This document shows positions 6,105 to 64,000 of a stretch of DNA of 64,000 nt, in pieces (positions within the stretch are counted from its first letter, which is position 1; each line of letters opens with the position of its first letter). The stretch is from Candidatus Barnesiella excrementigallinarum (GTDB taxonomy: Bacteria > Bacteroidota > Bacteroidia > Bacteroidales > Barnesiellaceae). The stretch lies in contig DXFL01000020.1 of assembly GCA_019114445.1 (NCBI GenBank), positions 62,001 to 126,000 of the forward strand. The letters are read 5' to 3'. The translations under genes were made by a program, and so were the position numbers. Below the pieces are notes generated by a model. It saw only the letters and a program-made list of their open reading frames with translations, was not told the DNA's origin and did not search any database.

Positions 6105-6719
6105 CTATATGAAGAGGAAGAAAAAGCTCCCGCAACTGACTATTCCCAATGCAAATCCGGCAGCTACCTGTCCTAATGTGTGGCGGTTGAGCAGAATGCG
6201 CGCAGAGCCGATCGCCCCAGCCAATAAGATAATGATGATTTGCAACGGGAAAATATAAGGGGTGAGCATAAGATGCGAGAAACTCATCAGAAATACCAAC
6301 GTAACCATCGATCCGGCGGCTACCATGTGTGCGCTTATTTTCCAGTATCGGTTGATAAAGAGGCAGATGATGAGCGAAACGATGGCTCCGGCGATGAACG
6401 AGAGTATCCAACTGGGTACCCCAAACCGATAGAGGTAGAGATAACAGGCTATGTAACAAGCGAAGTTGATGATGTAGGGAACTGTGCGCTCGGTACGGTT
6501 GTGTAGTCTGAAATCGCTTATCTGCCCGGTTTTGTAGAGAATGAATATCCCCAAAGACGGTAACACGCAGGTGGTAAGTAGTACGCCTATGATGATGATA
6601 CCCAGCAGGCGGTCGCCGAAAATGCGCATATACGAAGTGAACAGGGCTATTGCTATTCCATAAGTGGGCATGAGCAGCGGGTGAAATATCGTTGACAGTA
6701 TTGTGGCCAATTGTTTCAT
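6105..6719 (-). CDS. PAP2-like integral membrane protein with degenerate phosphatase motifs
   Basis: 204 residues, mostly hydrophobic, with about six membrane segments. The end resembles a type-2 phosphatidic acid phosphatase: SARILLNRHTLGQVAAG keeps the Arg-x5-His spacing of motif 3, but the final Asp is Gln. ISAHM stands where PSGH is expected. Family membership is inferred from this pattern; phosphatase activity is doubtful. It starts 18 bases after rpoN and precedes purE, so it is co-transcribed with them. A lipid-linked pyrophosphate role would suit the fold but is not shown. Confidence 0.7.
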   Translation of the reverse strand: MKQLATILSTIFHPLLMPTYGIAIALFTSYMRIFGDRLLGIIIIGVLLTTCVLPSLGIFILYKTGQISDFRLHNRTERTVPYIINFACYIACYLYLYRFGVPSWILSFIAGAIVSLIICLFINRYWKISAHMVAAGSMVTLVFLMSFSHLMLTPYIFPLQIIIILLAGAIGSARILLNRHTLGQVAAGFALGIVSCGSFFFLFI

Positions 6720-6737
6720 CTCTTTTGTGTTGAAGGT

Positions 6738-8207
6738 TTAAATTTCTTTTCGTAACCGGGCTACCGGGATCGCTAACTGTTCCCGATATTTGGCTACGGT
6801 GCGCCGGGCTATCGGGTAACCCTTTTGTTGCAAGAGTTCGCACAGCCGGTCGTCCGATAGCGGTTTCCGTTTGTCCTCGTGGTCGACCAGCTCTTGCAAC
6901 AGGCTTTTTATTTCGCGGGTCGATACCTCTTCGCCGGCATCGTTTTGCATAGATTCGGAGAAGAAATATTTTAACGGATAAATACCGAAATTTGTTTGCA
7001 CATATTTGCTGTTACTGGCTCGCGAAATGGTAGAAATGTCGTATCCGGTACGTTCGGCCACATCTTTCAGAATCATGGGTTTGAGGTTTCGCTCATCGCC
7101 GGTGAGGAAGAAATCCTTTTGCAATTCGACAATTACCTTTAAGGTGTTGAGCAGGGTTTCCTGCCGTTGTTTTACCGCATTGACAAACCATTGGGCGGCG
7201 TCGAGCTTTTGTTTGACGAAGAGCAGGGCGTCGCGTTTTTCGCGGGTTTGATTCTGTTTGTTGGAGGTGTAATCCTCGAACATCTCTTGGTAGTCGCGGC
7301 TAATATGCAGTTCGGGGACATTGCTGTTGTTTAGCCCGATGGAGAGTTCTCCGTCTTCTGCTTCGACAAAAAAGTCGGGGATAATGTGGTGTTCCGAGCT
7401 TCCCGAATAGCTGTTGTTCCAAGCACTGCCCGGTTTGGGATTGAGCAGGGTAATTTCGCGTATGGCCTGTTTCAACTCCGCCTCGCTTATCTCGCACTGA
7501 CGCATGATTTTGTCGTAGTGCTTTTTCGAAAACTCATCGAACATTTGGTCGATGATCTTGTAGGCCAACAAGTTGGATTTTGTGCCTTCGCGCCGTTCCA
7601 GTTGGAGCAGAAGACATTCCCGCAAGTTCGAAGCTCCTACGCCTGCCGGTTCGAATTCTTGAATGATTTGCAGGATTGTTTCGACCCGGCTTACGGGCAC
7701 GTCCAACCCCACTTGGAAGATGAGGTCGTCCGAGATGGCTTGTATAGGACGTTGCAGATAGCCGTTGTCGTCGATGTTGCCAATGATGTATTGGGCTATT
7801 TGGTGGTCGGTTTCGCTCAGGGGCAGTTCGCCCAACTGACTTTCCAAAAAGTCGTGGAACGACGAGGCCGAAACGAAGGGGATCTCTTCCCGGCGGTCGT
7901 CTTTCGAGAAGTTGCTGGCTTCGAGGCGATAGTCGGGAATATCGTCCTCATCGCGGTAGTCGCCCAAAGTAAGTTCTTCGGCCGATTCTCCGGGATTCCC
8001 GTCTTCGTCGGTGTTGTCGTTAAATTCGTTTAAGTTGTCCGGGGTTTCTTCCCGACCCTCTTCCAGAGCGGGATTATCGACCAGCTCTTGTTGCACACGT
8101 TCTTCGAATTCGATTTCGGTGAGTTCGAGAAGCCGAATGAGTTGGATTTGCTGGGGCGATAATTTTTGTTGTAGCTTTTGTTGTAATTGCTGTTTTAATG
8201 TTGCCAT
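6738..8207 (-). CDS. rpoN: RNA polymerase sigma-54 factor (RpoN)
   Basis: 489 residues. Region I, the glutamine-rich activator-interacting segment, is at the very N terminus (LKQQLQQKLQQKLSPQQIQLIRLLE). An acidic region II follows at about 50-100. The core-binding and helix-turn-helix parts come next, and the C-terminal RpoN box ARRTVAKYR is intact. It directs polymerase to -24/-12 promoters and needs AAA+ activators, none of which is in this window. It is the first gene of a five-gene operon. A TATCTTCG sequence at 8233-8240 (reverse strand) resembles a -7 box about 26 bases upstream. Confidence 0.97.
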   Translation of the reverse strand: MATLKQQLQQKLQQKLSPQQIQLIRLLELTEIEFEERVQQELVDNPALEEGREETPDNLNEFNDNTDEDGNPGESAEELTLGDYRDEDDIPDYRLEASNFSKDDRREEIPFVSASSFHDFLESQLGELPLSETDHQIAQYIIGNIDDNGYLQRPIQAISDDLIFQVGLDVPVSRVETILQIIQEFEPAGVGASNLRECLLLQLERREGTKSNLLAYKIIDQMFDEFSKKHYDKIMRQCEISEAELKQAIREITLLNPKPGSAWNNSYSGSSEHHIIPDFFVEAEDGELSIGLNNSNVPELHISRDYQEMFEDYTSNKQNQTREKRDALLFVKQKLDAAQWFVNAVKQRQETLLNTLKVIVELQKDFFLTGDERNLKPMILKDVAERTGYDISTISRASNSKYVQTNFGIYPLKYFFSESMQNDAGEEVSTREIKSLLQELVDHEDKRKPLSDDRLCELLQQKGYPIARRTVAKYREQLAIPVARLRKEI

Positions 8208-56555: not shown

Positions 56556-57488
56556 ATGGAGATTCATCGCTATACTGCGGCTTATCGTCGGGATTGGAAC
56601 GATTTTGTAAACGAGTCGTCGAACGGTACGTTTCTGTTTTTGCGGGAATATATGGAGTATCATGCCGACCGCTTTACCGATTATTCGCTTTTGATTTATG
56701 AAGGGAATAAGTTGTTGGCGCTGCTCCCGGCCAATAAAACGGGCGATGTGCTTTATTCGCACGCCGGACTTACTTATGGCGGACTGATTGTTACCACTCG
56801 CAACACAACGGTACAAGTGCTTGAAATTATGCAATTAATAGTCGATTTCTTGCGAAAAGAGCGATTTGTCAAATGGGTGTACAAGTGTGTGCCCCATATA
56901 TACCACCGTTATCCCTCGGAAGCCGATGTGTATGCTTTGTTTAGGCTGGGTGCCCGGTGGGTGGGGTGTAATATTTCGTCGACGGTCGAACAGGCTTGTC
57001 CGTTACGCTTTCGGGCCGATCGCCGCAGCCGTATAAAGAAAGCACAGCAAGCCGGCTTACAGGTAGTCGAGACGACCGATTTCGCTCCTTTTTGGTCTAT
57101 CTTGGAATCCAATTTACAAGAGCGATTTCGGGTGAAACCGGTTCATTCGTTAGCCGAGATAGAGTTGCTTCACAGCCGTTTCCCCGATCGCATACGCCAT
57201 TTTGTAACCATGCGCGACGGGGTGGTACTGGCGGGCAGCGTGGTTTACGACACGGGTATTGTGGCTCATGCGCAATATACTTCGGCTTCGGCCGAAGGAA
57301 AATCTTCGGGAGCTCTCGATCTGTTATATGGGAAAGTCATTGGCGAGATATTTGCCAGTCGCAAATGGTTCGATTTCGGGCAGTCGACCGAAGATATGGG
57401 TCATTATCTTAATGAAGGGCTTATTACCCAAAAGGAAGGTTTCGGGTGTCGTGCGATAGCCTATAACATATATGAAATTGCGCTATGA
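56556..57488 (+). CDS. GNAT/FemAB-like acyltransferase
   Basis: 310 residues. Two acyltransferase-like halves are seen; the second has FVTMRDGVVLAGSVVYDTG, AHAQYTSASAEGKSSGALDLLYGKVI and KWFDFGQSTEDMGHYLNEGL, typical of FemAB-like GNAT enzymes. RRSRIKKAQQAG matches the basic motif of such enzymes that work on cell-wall or glycan precursors. It starts 14 bases after the EnvC-like gene and overlaps the flippase gene by four bases. A role in modifying a lipid-linked glycan is likely but the substrate is not readable. Confidence 0.78.
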   Translation: MEIHRYTAAYRRDWNDFVNESSNGTFLFLREYMEYHADRFTDYSLLIYEGNKLLALLPANKTGDVLYSHAGLTYGGLIVTTRNTTVQVLEIMQLIVDFLRKERFVKWVYKCVPHIYHRYPSEADVYALFRLGARWVGCNISSTVEQACPLRFRADRRSRIKKAQQAGLQVVETTDFAPFWSILESNLQERFRVKPVHSLAEIELLHSRFPDRIRHFVTMRDGVVLAGSVVYDTGIVAHAQYTSASAEGKSSGALDLLYGKVIGEIFASRKWFDFGQSTEDMGHYLNEGLITQKEGFGCRAIAYNIYEIAL

Positions 57489-58936
57489 ACGAAGGAGAGG
57501 AGAAAAATCTGTACCGTACTATCGTGAAGGCGACCGGCCTTTTCGGGGGGACACAGGTCTTTACTATCCTCTGCTCGATTATTAAAACCAAGCTGGTGGC
57601 AGTGTGGTTGGGCGAAGTAGGCGTGGGTATCATTGGGTTGTATAACAATACGGTGGAGATGATCTCTTCGCTCACGAAGTTGGGTATCGGTACCAGTTCG
57701 GTGCGCGATTTGTCGAGAGCCTTTAAATCGGGCGACCTTAGCCGATTTAGCGAATTGGTAACGGTTGTGCGCCGTTGGATTTGGTTTACGGGATTATTGG
57801 GGGCGGTGGTTATGCTCACCTTTGCCCCCGTGTTGAGCCGTTATACGTTTGGCGACGATACCCACATTTGGGGATATGTATTTTTGTCGTGTACATTGCT
57901 GTTCACTTCGCTCACCGAGGGAGAGCGAGCTGTGATACAGGCGTCGGAACGTTTGCGCGTATTGGCCCGATGTTCGGTTTTAGGTTCGTTTTTGGCTCTG
58001 TTGCTGTCGTTGCCGCTATTCTATTTTTTCGGAATTTCGGGTATCGTGCCGGCAATTATTGTTCACACGTTTGCAATTTGGATTGTTACCGTTTTGTTGG
58101 GACGTCGCATGAAGATCAAACCGGTGCCGATGAGTTGGGGCGAAACCTATCGACAGGGAAAGCATATCGCTTCGTTGGGAATTTACATGACGGTGAGCGG
58201 TTTCGTTACGACACTATACTCCTATTTGTTTGTCGCTTGGCTCAATCATCGTGGCGGTACGGGAGAAGTGGGATTTTTTCAGGCCGGCTATACGTTGGTC
58301 ATGCAGTATGTGGGTTTGGTCTTTACGGCGATGTCGATGGAGTATTATCCCCGATTGTCGGCAGTGTGCGAGGATCGGCAACTGTTATCGAAGCATGTTT
58401 CGCAGCAGATAGAGACTTCGTTGTTGATTTTAGCCCCTTTCATTTCGCTTTTTATCGTCATGCAGACGGTGATTATACATATATTATATACGGCCGATTT
58501 TTTAGTGATAGGGGGGTATATCTCGTGGGCGGCATTGGGTATGCTGCTACGAGCCTTCTCGTGGAGTGTCAGTTTCGTGCTGTTGGCTAAGGGAGCCGGT
58601 CGTCTCTACCTGATTACCGAGGTTTTGGCCGATACATTGATGTTTGTCCTTTATTTGGTGGGATATACCCAGTGGGGATTGACCGGTGTAGGTGTAGCCT
58701 ATCTGTTGGCGTACTTGTTTTCGGGAGTGGGTATTTATTTGCTTTGCCGGATAAAGTTTGGGCTTCGTGTCTCTTCGCGGGTATTTGTGTTATTGGTGCT
58801 TGGTGTAATGGGATGTGCGGCTGTGTTGTTGCTGTGGCATAGCGATTATGTGATAGGCGCTTGGGTGGTTACGGCGGCGTGGGTGCTTCTGTCGGGAGTG
58901 CAGTTAAAACGGCGTTTGTCGCAACCGGGAGGCTGA
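57485..58936 (+). CDS. Wzx-type polysaccharide flippase (O-antigen translocase)
   Basis: 483 residues with about 12-14 membrane segments in the MATE/MVF-like arrangement. TGLFGGTQVFTILCSIIKTKLVAVWLG and GLYNNTVEMISSLTKLGIG mark the N terminus of Wzx/RfbX proteins. It moves lipid-linked oligosaccharides across the inner membrane. It is coupled to the acyltransferase gene upstream and followed by a glycosyltransferase after 69 bases. No Wzy polymerase is present nearby. Confidence 0.9.
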   Translation: MNEGEEKNLYRTIVKATGLFGGTQVFTILCSIIKTKLVAVWLGEVGVGIIGLYNNTVEMISSLTKLGIGTSSVRDLSRAFKSGDLSRFSELVTVVRRWIWFTGLLGAVVMLTFAPVLSRYTFGDDTHIWGYVFLSCTLLFTSLTEGERAVIQASERLRVLARCSVLGSFLALLLSLPLFYFFGISGIVPAIIVHTFAIWIVTVLLGRRMKIKPVPMSWGETYRQGKHIASLGIYMTVSGFVTTLYSYLFVAWLNHRGGTGEVGFFQAGYTLVMQYVGLVFTAMSMEYYPRLSAVCEDRQLLSKHVSQQIETSLLILAPFISLFIVMQTVIIHILYTADFLVIGGYISWAALGMLLRAFSWSVSFVLLAKGAGRLYLITEVLADTLMFVLYLVGYTQWGLTGVGVAYLLAYLFSGVGIYLLCRIKFGLRVSSRVFVLLVLGVMGCAAVLLLWHSDYVIGAWVVTAAWVLLSGVQLKRRLSQPGG

Positions 58937-59005
58937 GTATGGCAATAACCGGGAAGCGATTGACGTTTTTCAAATAAGAATGATATTCAAGAAGAGTATA
59001 GATTC

Positions 59006-60115
59006 ATGAAGATATTGTTAGTAGGCGATTATAGCAACTATCACCGGGCGTTGTCGTTAGCGCTGCGCCGTTTGGGGCACGAGGTTGTGGTGGCTTCGGA
59101 CGGTTCCCGCTGGATGAATACCGGCCGGGATATAGATACTTCGCGGCCTTTCAAGAACAAGGTAGGGGGATTGTTGTTGTGGTGGAAGCTAAGCCGGTTG
59201 CTACAATCGCGTTTGGAAGGGTATGATATTGTGCAAATAAATTCACCTGTGTTCATGTCCTTGCATCCCTATCGGTTGAAGCCGTTGTTCGACCGATTGG
59301 TCGAGAGGAATGGGGCGGTTTATCTTACAGCTATGGGCACCGATTCGTATTATATTGATTTTTGCCTGTCGGGGGCCTTGCGATATAGCGAATGGCAAAT
59401 AGGCGATAAGCTTTCGCCTCTTGCCCTTGCCCAGCATGATGAACTTTTGCGTTGGCAGGCTCCGGTGCTGACCGATTATACCCGGTATGTGTATGAACAT
59501 ATCGATGGGGTAGTGAGCGGTTTGTATGAATATCACGAATGCTGCAAACGAATTGTGCCTCCATCGAAGCTCGCTTATGCCGGCATTCCTATCGATACCG
59601 ATTCGTTGACAATGGCTCATGGCGACGAAATTCCTGCAAAGGTAAAATTGTTTTTGGGTGTGCATAAGGAGCGTATGGTCGAAAAAGGAACCGACCGAAT
59701 GTTTGCTGCCGCTCGAAAAGTGGTAGAACGGTATCCCGACAAGTGCGAGTTGGTTTATGTAGAGAATCGTCCTTATAGCGAGTATGTGAAATTGATGCGC
59801 TCGTCGCACGTGGTACTCGACCAACTTTACAGCTATACTCCCGCCACCAATGCGCTGTTGGCGATGGCTCAGGGTTTGGTGGTCGTGAGCGGGGCGGAAC
59901 CGGAATATTACAATTTCATTGGGGAGCAGGAGAATAGACCTATCGTCAACGCCATTCCCGACGATGAGAAACTGGTTTCGCAACTCGAAGATATTGTACT
60001 TCACCCCGAACGGCTTCCCGAACAGGCTCGCCGTAGTCGAGCGTTTGTAATAAAACACAATCGCGATGCGGTGGTAGCGCAACGCTTCCTCGATTTTTGG
60101 GCAACTCGTAGGTGA
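59006..60115 (+). CDS. Glycosyltransferase, GT4-like (GT-B fold)
   Basis: 369 residues. The N-terminal half begins MKILLVGDYSNYHRALSLALRRLGH, a nucleotide-fold start (shown in part: LLVGDYSNYHRALS). The C-terminal half has FLGVHKERMVEKGTDRMFAAA, VLDQLYSYTPATNALLAMAQGL and VVSGAEPEYY, the donor-binding region of GT-B enzymes, with the E-x7-E-like pattern weakly kept. It adds a sugar to a lipid-linked glycan; donor and acceptor are unknown. It ends three bases from the convergent GT2 gene. Confidence 0.82.
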   Translation: MKILLVGDYSNYHRALSLALRRLGHEVVVASDGSRWMNTGRDIDTSRPFKNKVGGLLLWWKLSRLLQSRLEGYDIVQINSPVFMSLHPYRLKPLFDRLVERNGAVYLTAMGTDSYYIDFCLSGALRYSEWQIGDKLSPLALAQHDELLRWQAPVLTDYTRYVYEHIDGVVSGLYEYHECCKRIVPPSKLAYAGIPIDTDSLTMAHGDEIPAKVKLFLGVHKERMVEKGTDRMFAAARKVVERYPDKCELVYVENRPYSEYVKLMRSSHVVLDQLYSYTPATNALLAMAQGLVVVSGAEPEYYNFIGEQENRPIVNAIPDDEKLVSQLEDIVLHPERLPEQARRSRAFVIKHNRDAVVAQRFLDFWATRR

Positions 60116-60118
60116 CGG

Positions 60119-61144
60119 TTACAACTGTTTTTTTATCCACTCTTTTCCTCTCGATAGGGTTAACAAAGCTCCGTCGGTGAGCCGTTGGTTTTTCCAGCGC
60201 AAGGCAATTTTCATTAATCGGAAGATAAGAGGCAGCCATGTGGCTTGTTGTACCATTTCGTAATCTTGCCGATAGACCTCTTCGATAAATGCCCATCGTT
60301 CGCGGGCAGGATAGTTCCCCTCGGCTGTGTATAGGGCATAAATCGATTGGTAGATGAGGTGAGCCCGTTCTTCCAAGATATAACGGTCGTACTCTTTGTT
60401 ATTATTAATTCCAAACTGTTGTTTAAGTTCCTGCCGTTGTGTATAAGCCTCTCTGGCATAGGCCGATAATTCTTTATACGGAAGTAGCCGGTTGGTAAGC
60501 GAATTTGTATTGCGCTTGATATAGAGATAATTCGACCGGTCGACGGTGGAGATAGATTGGCAATGTTTTACATATTCGAGTACGAATAGATGGTCCTCGC
60601 CGTAGGAGTAGCGAGGGTCGAATTGAATGTTGTATTGTTGTATGAGATCGTGTTTGTAGAGTTTGGCGCAAGGCCCTTTTGTTGTAGACCGAATTTCGGC
60701 ATCGGCAAAAAGGGTCCCTCGCTCGCGCTCGGACAGGGCTATGGTTGTATGGTCGAATCCGCACGTATTCGATCGTCCCGACCGTTCTTCGATAAGCGAT
60801 ATTCCTTGTATGGTCAGATCGGACGGGGCAAGAAGAAAGTCGGAGAGGTAGGTGGGAGTTACTCGATCGTCGGCATCGACGAATGTGATATATTCGCCCC
60901 GGGCAACGTCCATACCCCGGTTTCGTGTTCTCGATACGCCTGCATTGTGTTGGTGCAGGGCGACGATACGAGGATCTTGTGCGGCATATTGGTCGATAAT
61001 TGCCCCCGAACCATCGGTCGAACCGTCGTCGATTAAGAGGAGTTCGAACGACGGATAGTCCTGACAGCGTATGCTATCGATGCATACTGGCAGGAATCGT
61101 TCGGTGTTGTAAACCGGTATGATGACAGAGATGAGCGGTTTCAT
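60119..61144 (-). CDS. Glycosyltransferase family 2
   Basis: 341 residues. The GT-A fold shows ISVIIPVYNTERFLPVCIDSI, LLIDDGSTDGSG, NRGMDVARGEYITFVDADDRV (the DxD motif is DADD) and a helical C-terminal third. It transfers a hexose or similar to a glycan acceptor. It is read towards the GT4 gene; only three bases separate their ends. It belongs by content to the flippase cassette, but is transcribed from its own promoter. Confidence 0.92.
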   Translation of the reverse strand: MKPLISVIIPVYNTERFLPVCIDSIRCQDYPSFELLLIDDGSTDGSGAIIDQYAAQDPRIVALHQHNAGVSRTRNRGMDVARGEYITFVDADDRVTPTYLSDFLLAPSDLTIQGISLIEERSGRSNTCGFDHTTIALSERERGTLFADAEIRSTTKGPCAKLYKHDLIQQYNIQFDPRYSYGEDHLFVLEYVKHCQSISTVDRSNYLYIKRNTNSLTNRLLPYKELSAYAREAYTQRQELKQQFGINNNKEYDRYILEERAHLIYQSIYALYTAEGNYPARERWAFIEEVYRQDYEMVQQATWLPLIFRLMKIALRWKNQRLTDGALLTLSRGKEWIKKQL

Positions 61145-61321: not shown

Positions 61322-62059
61322 TCAGGAGATATTCATTTTGTTTTGTCTCCGATAAGCCATGGGCGATATTTTTTTCTGTTTCTTGAAAAATTTGCAGAAA
61401 GAGGCTTGATCGGAAAAATGGAGAGTTTCGGCAATTTCGCCTATGGATATGCTGTCGTCTTCGAGCAATGTCATGGCTTGGTGAGTGATTTCATCGCAAA
61501 TGACCGTGTGAGGAGTTTTGCCAATCATCTCTTTGATGACACGGGTGAGGTGCTTGATAGAGATGCATAGGGAATCGGCGTAAAATTCGATGTGATGTTC
61601 TTTGGCAAAATGTTTCGAGACTAGTTTCATGAAGTTGAGTGTGATGAAATCGCGCCTGCTGAAGTAAGGGGGGATGTCGCTTTTTTCCTGTTGATAAAGG
61701 AGCATGATATTGCCCAGTTCGAGACTGAAACTTTTGAAATAAAGTTCGGTGAGTTCCTGTCGGAAGTAGTGGGTTGTACGGTCGAGAATGTCGTTTAGCA
61801 AATATAGTTGCCGTTCGAGAAGGATAAATTCGCCTTCGGTGAAATGCCATATAGGTATCTCTTTGCATTCTAAGGAATAGGGCAGCGACCCCGATATGGC
61901 AGCAGTGAACGTACAGAACAAGGTCTCGACGGCCACTTCGCTTTTGCCGGCCGAAGTGACGAAGGTGGGCGTGACTACCATGAAACGCCAAAGCAGTATG
62001 TTGAAAATTTTCGGGCTATATAGCCCAAACGGCACATACGACGAAAAATTCCTTACCAA
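61322..62059 (-). CDS. AraC family regulator, N-terminal part lost (chimeric start)
   Basis: 245 residues as an open frame, but only about residues 61-245 are AraC-like. The C-terminal helix-turn-helix pair is intact: FYADSLCISIKHLTRVIKEMIGK and ISIGEIAETLHFSDQASFCKFFKKQKK (shown in part: SIGEIAETLHFSDQASFCKF). The first ~60 residues are read antisense through an RND efflux gene, up to a junction near 61,880. Family members are about 280-300 residues, so ~100 N-terminal residues (ligand domain) are missing. The gene is probably non-functional or translated without its sensing domain. Related regulators sit divergently next to efflux operons. Confidence 0.75.
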   Translation of the reverse strand: MVRNFSSYVPFGLYSPKIFNILLWRFMVVTPTFVTSAGKSEVAVETLFCTFTAAISGSLPYSLECKEIPIWHFTEGEFILLERQLYLLNDILDRTTHYFRQELTELYFKSFSLELGNIMLLYQQEKSDIPPYFSRRDFITLNFMKLVSKHFAKEHHIEFYADSLCISIKHLTRVIKEMIGKTPHTVICDEITHQAMTLLEDDSISIGEIAETLHFSDQASFCKFFKKQKKISPMAYRRQNKMNIS

Positions 62060-64000
62060 TTACCTGAGCATTAACGTCAAACCGCAGATACAACGTATAT
62101 CGGGAGTCGGCGAGGTGAATGTGATGGGAGGCGATTATGCCATGCGTATTTGGTTGAAACCCGATGTGATGGCGCAGTATGAGTTGGAACCGAGCGACGT
62201 GGAAGCCGCGTTGTCGAGCCAAAACATAGAGGCTTCGACAGGAGCTATCGGCGAGGATTCGAAAAACGTGTATCAATATACGTTGAAATACCGGGGCCGG
62301 TTGGAAAAGGAGCAGGAGTTCGAAGAGATTGTCATTAAGGCCTACGACGACGGCCGGGTGTTGAAACTGAAAGATATTGCTACCGTGGAATTGGGCTCGC
62401 AGAGCTACTCTTATACCGGCCGGGTGAATGGCGCTGCGGGATCAACCTGTATGATCAACCAGATGGCGGGAACAAATGCCAACGAGATTATTACGGATAT
62501 AGACAAATTGTTGGCCGAGGTGCAAGAGTCGTTGCCGGAGGATATGGAGATTGTGGAGTTGATGAGTACCAAAAATTTTCTCGACGCTTCGATCAACGAA
62601 GTGATTAAAACTTTGCTCGAAGCGATTATTCTGGTCGTGCTTGTCGTTTATGTCTTTCTGCAAAATCCGCGTTCGACGCTTATCCCCACGATCAGTATCT
62701 TTGTCTCGTTGATCGGTACGTTTGCGGTCCTGTATGTGGCCGGGTTCAGTATCAACCTGCTCACGTTGTTTGCCCTTGTATTGGCTATCGGTACGATAGT
62801 GTCCGATGCCATTATTGTGGTGGAGGCGGTGCAGGTCCGTTTCGATGAGGGATACCGTTCGCCCTATAAAGCCTCAATCGATGCGATGAGTGGTATTTCG
62901 TCGGCGATTGTAACCTCTACGCTGGTGTTTATGGCCGTGTTTGTGCCGGTTTCGTTCATGGGCGGTACGTCGGGTGTTTTCTATACCCAGTTTGGTATTA
63001 CGATGGCTGTGGCTGTGGGTATCTCGGCCATCAATGCTTTGACCCTTTCGCCGGCTCTTTGTGCGCTGTTGCTGCGTCCGAACGAGATATTGGTCGACGG
63101 GAAAAAGCCCGAATTTTCGACACGCTTCCGCTTGGCTTTCGACGCCGTGTTCAAGCGGTTGGTATTGAAATATAAAGAAGGTGCTAAGTTTTTCATTAAA
63201 CGTAAATGGTTGGTTTGGACGGCTTTTGCCGCTTCGGTTCTTTTGTTGTTGTATTTTATGGGTACGACCAAAACCAGTTTGGTGCCTTCGGAGGATACGG
63301 GTTCTATTTTTGTAAGCCTCGATACGCCGGCGGGCAGTACGTTGGCCGAAACGGCAAGTATCATGGATAAAGTAGAAGCCGAGTTGAAACAGATTCCGCA
63401 AATAGAGAATTTCAACAACGTGGCCGGATTCGGCATGGGTACGGGCAGTGGTTCGTCGCATGGTATGTTTATCGTTAAATTGAAACATTGGGACGAACGA
63501 AAAGGCGAAGATGGCAGTGTCGATGCCATTTCGGCCGAGATTTACCGCCGTACGGCACATATCAAGAATGCCCGCTTGTTTGTCTTTTCGCCGCCGATGA
63601 TTGCCGGATACGGTACCGGAAACAGTTTTGAACTGTATATGCAGGATCGTTCGGGAAAGGGTATCGAGGCTTTGAGCCAAGTGACAAACGATTTTTTGGC
63701 GGAATTGAACAAACGTCCCGAAATACAAATGGCTTATACTTCGTTCAGCTCCAATTTCCCCCAGTATCGGGTCGATGTGGATGAGGCTCAGTGTCAACGG
63801 GCGGGGATTACCACGGAAAAGGTGCTTTCGGTATTGTCGGGTTATTTCGGCAGTATTTATGCTTCGAATTTCAATCGTTTTACCAAATTGTATCGGGTTA
63901 TCATACAGGCTCCGTCGGATAGTCGCAAGAGTATCCAGTCTCTCGACAATGTCTTTGTCAAAACAGCCGATGGTATGGCTCCCGTCAGCCAGTTTGTGAA
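61881..64000 (+). CDS. RND efflux transporter permease (HAE1/AcrB-type), 5' end lost, runs off the right edge
   Basis: Open for 706 codons from 61881 to the window edge. It begins GSDPDMAAVNVQNKV, which corresponds to about residue 88 of AcrB, so membrane helix 1 and half of the first porter subdomain are absent; a TAG lies directly before. Downstream the family pattern is complete (ISGVGEVNVMGGDYAMRIWL, LALVLAIGTIVSDAI). In helix 4 the AcrB Asp407 position is Ser (62802-62804) while Asp408 remains. Possible starts are ATG 61896 or 61980, but neither would give a complete pump. The adaptor gene that normally precedes it is missing. Confidence 0.8.

What the first reader, a model, noticed from the sequence alone, without database searches (positions are those of the whole stretch)
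61860..62000. Head-to-head join of a truncated AraC regulator and a truncated RND pump
Seen: at about 61,880 the minus strand leaves AraC-like coding (ends with LPYSLEC towards the N terminus) and the plus strand starts RND coding at GSDPDMA. A TAG lies directly before it in the RND frame. About 100 AraC residues, about 88 RND residues, the intergenic region and the adaptor gene are absent. Known: Bacteroidales often carry AraC divergent from adaptor - RND - TolC. Inference: one deletion of about 2 kb joined the two, or an assembly artefact did. The antisense reading adds a new 60-residue N terminus to AraC.
Basis: partly seen in the sequence, partly recalled or inferred. Interest (0 to 1): 0.7.

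Follow-up and report, generated by a model that had tools for sequence, protein, structure and literature searches.

The report
Repeatedly broken efflux pump operon
A gut bacterium has lost about 2,000 DNA letters from a gene switch and its drug-type efflux pump, and related species carry the same pump broken in other ways, which suggests that this pump is repeatedly thrown away.

Summary
The join is in the assembly and reads as a simple deletion. The window is from Barnesiella. Congener G006 has an intact divergent AraC | adaptor-RND-OMF operon at the same place; relative to four congeners the window lacks 1,950-1,957 bp: about 106 AraC residues, the intergenic region, the adaptor and 97 RND residues. 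The missing DNA was not found elsewhere in the assembly, in either orientation; only paralogous regions match. So no inversion, and a misassembly on a shared word of at most 7 bp is unlikely. Reads were not available.

The larger finding is outside the window. Of five Barnesiella genomes with an RND gene at this site, four are broken, each differently (about 1.95 kb; 1,955 bp; 120 bp plus a stop; 144 bp plus a frameshift). A single-contig genome keeps an OMF stub, and in three nothing was found there. The 59 other RND genes of the nine genomes match nearly end to end without stops. The remnants show no relaxed selection, so the breaks look young. Best reading: recurrent, recent loss of one pump, like mtrCDE loss in gonococcus. 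The selective agent, if any, is unknown.

The parts
61322..61885 (-). 3' remnant of the AraC-family regulator gene (C-terminal 186 residues with the whole HTH domain); about 106 N-terminal residues and the start are missing
   Evidence: ORF and stop; Pfam HTH_18; alignment to Barnesiella orthologues of 293-295 aa
61879..61885 (.). Deletion join AGGGCAG, where the AraC and RND homologies overlap; in the four relatives the two sides share only 2-4 identical bases in register (GCAG in two)
61878..61880 (+). TAG stop directly before the RND frame, on the AraC side of the join
61879..64000 (+). RND (HAE-1/CmeB-like) permease gene lacking its first 97 codons; runs past the window end to contig position 126730, open to its stop
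62802..62804 (+). Serine codon in GTIV-S-DA where five compared orthologues have aspartate (G006 residue 405, aligned to CmeB D409); a second lesion, in the proton relay
   Evidence: AcrB D407N inactive per PMC4359379 passages; D407 equivalence by recall
61322..62059 (-). Mechanical antisense extension of AraC (245 aa, TTG start); no sign of function
60119..61144 (-). Left neighbour (glycosyltransferase by recall), found at this place also in G001, G003, G004 and G005; not part of the operon

Best explanation
In this Barnesiella an illegitimate deletion of about 1.95 kb removed the control region, the adaptor gene and the 5' ends of the divergent AraC regulator and RND permease genes, so the tripartite pump is dead (deletion shown on the assembly; loss of function inferred from anatomy). 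It is one of at least four separate, recent inactivations of the same ancestral pump in the genus (G000, G003, G005, and G008 with or without G001; shown by comparison of assemblies), besides three genomes with an empty site. The likely driver is that the pump is useful over long times, as its sequence was under strong purifying selection, but costly under present conditions, so that broken copies rise repeatedly and are later trimmed away (inferred). Other RND pumps in the genome may make the loss tolerable (inferred). The confidence given is for the recurrent, recent deletion; for the selected driver I would say about one half, the neutral rival below differing only on that point.
For: (1) Same chromosomal place in the nine Barnesiella genomes held: G006 intact; G000, G003, G005 and G008 broken differently; G001 has only an OMF C-terminal stub (88% aa to G006); in G002, G004 and G007 no operon gene was found. 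(2) Different joins: G000 1,950-1,957 bp; G003 1,955 bp with a 10-bp repeat GCATCATGGA; G008 120 bp in frame (repeat GGCCAT), removing the GTIVDDA relay segment, plus a stop at codon 242; G005 144 bp in frame (GACGG with G006 as proxy), removing the SKTAILL segment, plus a frameshift near residue 1009. (3) Of 64 RND genes in the nine genomes, 4 of 5 at this site are broken against 0 of 59 elsewhere, hypergeometric P about 8e-6; with the window copy, which led me here, left out, 3 of 4 against 0 of 59, P about 1e-4. (4) RND dN/dS between these orthologues is about 0.02-0.04. N/S private to G000 is 0.22, against 0.36 in intact G006 and 0.21 pooled over three intact paralogues of G000; more than about 4% of the G000 branch without constraint is excluded at 5%. 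(5) G003 and G005 are pure-culture isolates and G001 is one contig.
Against: So each lesion rests on one assembly. Nothing was measured about cost or benefit. The shared bases at the G000 join are 2-4 in the relatives, no more than chance (P 0.06-0.66), and for G005 the repeat is 5 bp (P 0.018) with one proxy but 3 bp (P 0.22) with the other. G008 and G001 are sisters, so an earlier shared lesion erased in G001 is possible. N/S of G000 is 1.14 in AraC (G006 1.75) and 0.40 in OMF (G006 0.86): not raised, but the AraC piece is small.
Confidence: 0.78

Rival explanations
1. Assembly or binning artefact: two distant pieces of an intact operon were joined wrongly.
For: The window genome is a draft of 30 contigs, 93.6% complete; no reads could be mapped.
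Against: The shared word is at most 7 bp, while de Bruijn assemblers join on longer words (recalled; the An22/An55 paper used k 20-110; the assembler of the window genome is unknown). The missing 1.95 kb was not found elsewhere in the assembly. Four other assemblies show other lesions or remnants of the same operon while 59 other RND genes are whole.
Confidence: 0.1
2. Neutral decay: the genus, or several of its species, no longer needs the pump, and lesions accumulate at random without any benefit of loss. This agrees with the best explanation on the lesions and differs on the driver.
For: Two lesions each in G005 and G008, and the relay substitution plus deletion in G000, fit further decay after a first inactivation; deletions at short repeats are ordinary mutations.
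Against: Decay since before speciation would raise N/S; it is not raised. Young lesions in four of five carriers, with none in 59 other RND genes, need a recent cause common to several species.
Confidence: 0.35
3. DNA inversion or programmed rearrangement that can restore the operon.
For: Bacteroidales use invertible DNA widely (recalled).
Against: The missing DNA was not found in either orientation; each species has a different break, not a shared switch site.
Confidence: 0.02
4. The remnants work: an HTH-only AraC fragment with a new N terminus and a shortened permease form a new unit.
For: Both frames are open to their stops; the HTH domain is whole. The promoter scans do not speak against it: the exact TTTG-N18-21-TANNTTTG pattern is absent within 61.3-62.3 kb but is also absent from the intact G006 operon.
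Against: The permease lacks its N-terminal 97 residues, its adaptor and a relay aspartate.
Confidence: 0.04

Closest known systems
Recurrent loss-of-function of the mtrCDE RND pump in Neisseria gonorrhoeae (Ma et al. 2020, PMC7431566; abstract, outline, section 8 and passages seen)
   Same: An RND efflux operon, valuable in other settings, is broken many times; the authors propose a niche-specific cost of the pump
   Different: There, mostly a 2-bp deletion in one hexarepeat of mtrC in about 1 of 25 isolates of one species; here, different deletions of 120 bp to 1.95 kb in several species of a gut genus, with no phenotype or niche data
CmeB / AcrB HAE-1 RND permeases (best PDB match CmeB 5t0o)
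   Same: Closest solved relative by sequence; same family and TM4 relay motif in the orthologues that keep it
   Different: The window gene lacks 97 N-terminal residues and has serine at the position aligned to CmeB D409
Bacteroides thetaiotaomicron BT2792-BT2795 bile-salt efflux operon (PMC10994844 and PMC11078008, passages)
   Same: Tripartite RND operon in a gut Bacteroidales; a lead for the substrate (bile salts)
   Different: Orthology was not tested

Membership tests
HAE-1 RND multidrug permease (AcrB/CmeB) | ACR_tran domain over the whole protein | tested here: not met
   78-1020 of 1021 in the contig gene, with a TAG inside the match; orthologue homology starts at residue 98. Met in G006 (3-1020)
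HAE-1 RND multidrug permease (AcrB/CmeB) | Two adjacent relay aspartates in TM4 and a lysine in TM10 (TM numbering by recall) | tested here: not met
   Window has S-D in TM4; the SK motif of TM10 is kept. G003, G005, G006, G016 and G029 have D-D
HAE-1 RND multidrug permease (AcrB/CmeB) | Cognate periplasmic adaptor gene in the operon | tested here: not met
   Adaptor absent at the site; the matches in the own genome at E up to 1e-100 are 52% and 48% identical, at other loci
Recurrent loss-of-function of an RND efflux operon (mtrCDE-like) | Separate lesions in several lineages, intact orthologue in a relative | tested here: met
Recurrent loss-of-function of an RND efflux operon (mtrCDE-like) | Lesions concentrated in this operon rather than in pumps generally | tested here: met
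   4 of 5 here against 0 of 59 other RND genes in the genus; 3 of 4 without the window copy
Recurrent loss-of-function of an RND efflux operon (mtrCDE-like) | Association of loss with a niche or a measured fitness effect | not testable with these tools
   One genome per species and no phenotype data
Invertible (phase-variable) DNA | Missing segment present in inverted orientation | tested here: not met
Invertible (phase-variable) DNA | Inverted repeats at the ends of the segment | not tested
   No inverted-repeat search was run at the ends; only same-strand bases were compared

The most novel reading that the evidence does not exclude
The operon is a contingency-by-loss locus: kept by long-term selection in the genus, but selected against so strongly in the current host setting that nearly every sampled species that still carries it has a fresh, private break. 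The proton-driven permease is the preferred target (relay aspartate segment deleted in G008, relay lysine segment deleted in G005, relay aspartate changed in the window), so the cost would come from transport itself rather than from making the proteins.
Probability: 0.25. Interest if true: 0.72.

Novelty: new member of a known kind. Interest (0 to 1): 0.5.

Why it matters
Efflux pumps are mostly studied for being gained or overproduced. A pump that several commensal species discard separately and recently would point to a present cost of efflux in the animal gut, and to a natural source of susceptible commensals. It is testable by read mapping in public data, strain surveys, and removal of the intact operon.

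Tried and rejected
Rejected: inversion (the missing segment was not found in either orientation); a functional antisense-extended AraC (the added part aligns poorly with the five AraC relatives and has no Pfam match); general decay of the neighbourhood (the flanking FemX-like, flippase, GT2 and ArgE genes, names by recall, are nearly full length wherever the fetched stretch covers them; in G001 the flippase match is only 33% identical, and the left glycosyltransferases differ between species).

Tried with little gain: Rfam scan of the window (3 tRNAs); sigma-70 and terminator scan; the Bacteroidales promoter pattern (recalled) has no match near the join, but none in the intact G006 operon either, so it tells nothing. 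One search gave one 29-base match of G002 to the G006 stretch, outside the operon genes; no match in G004 or G007. Literature: the listings (titles and starts of abstracts) (0 papers; 4; 12 of 14 listed; 8 of 9 listed; 1) showed no report on this operon in Barnesiella, which does not show that none exists; passages of PMC10881964 and PMC12889059 had nothing on it; some searches were used for leads. A first species tree was spoiled by antisense ORFs taken for some genomes and was replaced. The order-wide search is no fair background for broken genes, because its E-value limit favours full-length matches; I did not use it for the count. The N/S counts are made base by base and contain false nonsynonymous calls, in controls alike; the relay codon was not counted there because G008 lacks it. 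One search used G000, G005, G006 and G008 only; G003 was left out because nearly half its RND gene is missing. Residues at lesion edges of G003 and G005 were masked. The chance figures are for places centred on the repeat by eye, so they are somewhat generous.

Full report
What was checked. The window is contig C19, 62001-126000, of a 2.61 Mb, 30-contig genome. An22 and An55 are chicken-caecum pure cultures, listed there as B. viscericola and assembled with IDBA-UD at k 20-110; the median coverage over all isolates of that study was 312-fold (PMC6069880, passages).

The join. AraC homology on the minus strand runs through 61885 and RND homology on the plus strand begins at 61879 (G005, G006) or 61876 (G003, G008). 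These four congeners have an AraC gene of 293-295 aa divergent from an adaptor of 376-378 aa, followed by RND and outer-membrane factor (OMF) genes or their broken forms, at the same place. Between the two homologies they hold 1,950, 1,957, 1,955 and 1,956 bp (G008, G003, G005, G006) that the window lacks: about 106 AraC residues, 203-207 bp between the genes, the adaptor and 97 RND residues. The join in the window reads AGGGCAG. In the four relatives the two sides share only 2-4 identical bases in register (GCAG in two), which is no more than chance.

Is the missing DNA elsewhere? The G005 segment used as query gave three matches in two other regions of the own genome, C27 and C30, at 64-81% over parts. 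Its adaptor gave two matches at E up to 1e-100, 52% and 48% identical, while the adaptors of G003, G008 and G006 are 94, 92 and 82% identical to it. So the segment was not found in this assembly in either orientation. Without reads an artefact is not excluded, but a misjoin on so short a word, leaving no trace of the missing part, is unlikely.

The series of losses. At this site G006 is intact (AraC 295, adaptor 378, RND 1046, OMF 456 residues, no stops). G008 lacks 120 bp in frame from the RND gene, removing GTIVDDAIIVVEAVQ and what follows, with a 6-bp repeat, and has a stop at codon 242. G005 lacks 144 bp in frame, removing the segment with SKTAILL, with a 5-bp repeat (G006 as proxy), and has a frameshift near residue 1009. 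G003 lacks 1,955 bp (G008 as proxy) between a 10-bp repeat in RND and OMF, giving one fused frame of 850 codons. The chance of a repeat as long at random register pairs was 0.004 for G008, 0.018 for G005 (0.22 with the other proxy) and 0.0004 for G003. G001, a single-contig genome, keeps only OMF residues 253-456 there; in G002, G004 and G007 no operon gene was found between the neighbours. On a tree of three paralogous pumps G000 is sister to intact G006, G003 to G005, and G008 to G001 (supports 88, 72 and 100). So the breaks of G000, G003, G005 and G008 are different and separate; G008 and G001 could share an earlier, erased lesion. The safe count is four inactivations, plus whatever emptied the other three sites.

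Control. Over the nine genomes a Pfam ACR_tran search gave 66 rows. Seven rows belong to the five RND genes at this site (one intact, four broken); the other 59 each cover the model from position 1-4 to 1019-1021 with no stop. Four of five against none of 59 has a hypergeometric P of about 8e-6. The window copy led me to this site; without it, 3 of 4 against 0 of 59 gives about 1e-4.

Age. Between the Barnesiella orthologues RND dN/dS is about 0.02-0.04 (dN 0.014-0.043, dS 0.4-1.9; the larger dS values are near saturation). Changes private to G000 in the RND remnant are 22 nonsynonymous and 99 synonymous (0.22); intact G006 has 33 and 93, and the three intact paralogues of G000 pool to 0.21. 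G008 and G005 have 7/55 and 12/63. A simple Poisson bound excludes more than about 4% of the G000 branch without constraint (neutral ratio assumed 3). The lesions look young against the age of the species.

Second lesion in the window. Where G003, G005, G006, G016 and G029 have GTIVDDA, the window has GTIVSDA, codon 62802-62804 (G008 lacks the segment). This residue aligns to CmeB D409, which is AcrB D407 by recall. D407N, D408N, K940A and R971A of AcrB are inactive (PMC4359379, passages). Three of the four broken RND genes are thus hit at or around the relay. This was noticed after the fact and is only suggestive.

How it most likely works. Shown on assemblies: a deletion in this genome, different deletions in related genomes, whole paralogues, and no sign of long relaxed selection. 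Inferred: the pump is dead here, other RND pumps soften the loss, and a cost of the pump under present conditions lets broken alleles rise. A bile-salt role of a B. thetaiotaomicron RND operon (PMC10994844, PMC11078008, passages) is a lead for the substrate, not a test. The closest known case is the repeated mtrCDE loss in gonococcus (PMC7431566: abstract, outline, section 8 and passages), where a niche cost is proposed.

Limits. One genome per species; two of the other broken genomes are isolates, one is a MAG, and for G001, G002, G004, G006 and G007 the origin is not known to me. No reads, no phenotypes, no within-species frequencies; metagenome, viral, phage and plasmid collections were not searched.

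Noticed in passing
L026:5222-7774 (G003 = Barnesiella sp. An22): The 1,955-bp deletion joins RND (to about residue 592) in frame to the OMF, giving one open frame of 850 codons, a chimera that is probably dead.
   Followed up: partly
L109:7953-8564 (G001, single contig): Stub of the OMF C terminus (95% nt identical to G008) at the same place, with an unrelated 297-aa minus-strand ORF at 6381-7272 to its left.
   Followed up: partly
window 61,880 and L026 near 6990: The deletions in G000 (1,950-1,957 bp) and G003 (1,955 bp) have nearly the same length although they remove different parts of the operon; probably coincidence.
   Followed up: no
L114:5098-11811 (G049, another family) and L054 (uncultured Bacteroidales, OMF seen only to residue 52): Unbroken relatives of the operon have RND proteins 89-90% identical to Barnesiella G006 but AraC only 48-52%; the permease is conserved far better than its regulator.
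   Followed up: partly
G200:C6:74180-77296, G111:C33:73112-76231, G088:C28:16698-19817: RND relatives with one in-frame stop reported inside a nearly full-length match (TGA, TGA, TAA) in other Bacteroidales genomes.
   Followed up: no
window 56556-61144: FemX-like, flippase and glycosyltransferase genes (names by recall) beside the operon; the gene at 59006-60115 has an 82-84% match in G001, G003, G004 and G005 but a 39-41% match on the other strand in G002, G006, G007 and G008, as in an exchanged surface-polysaccharide locus.
   Followed up: no
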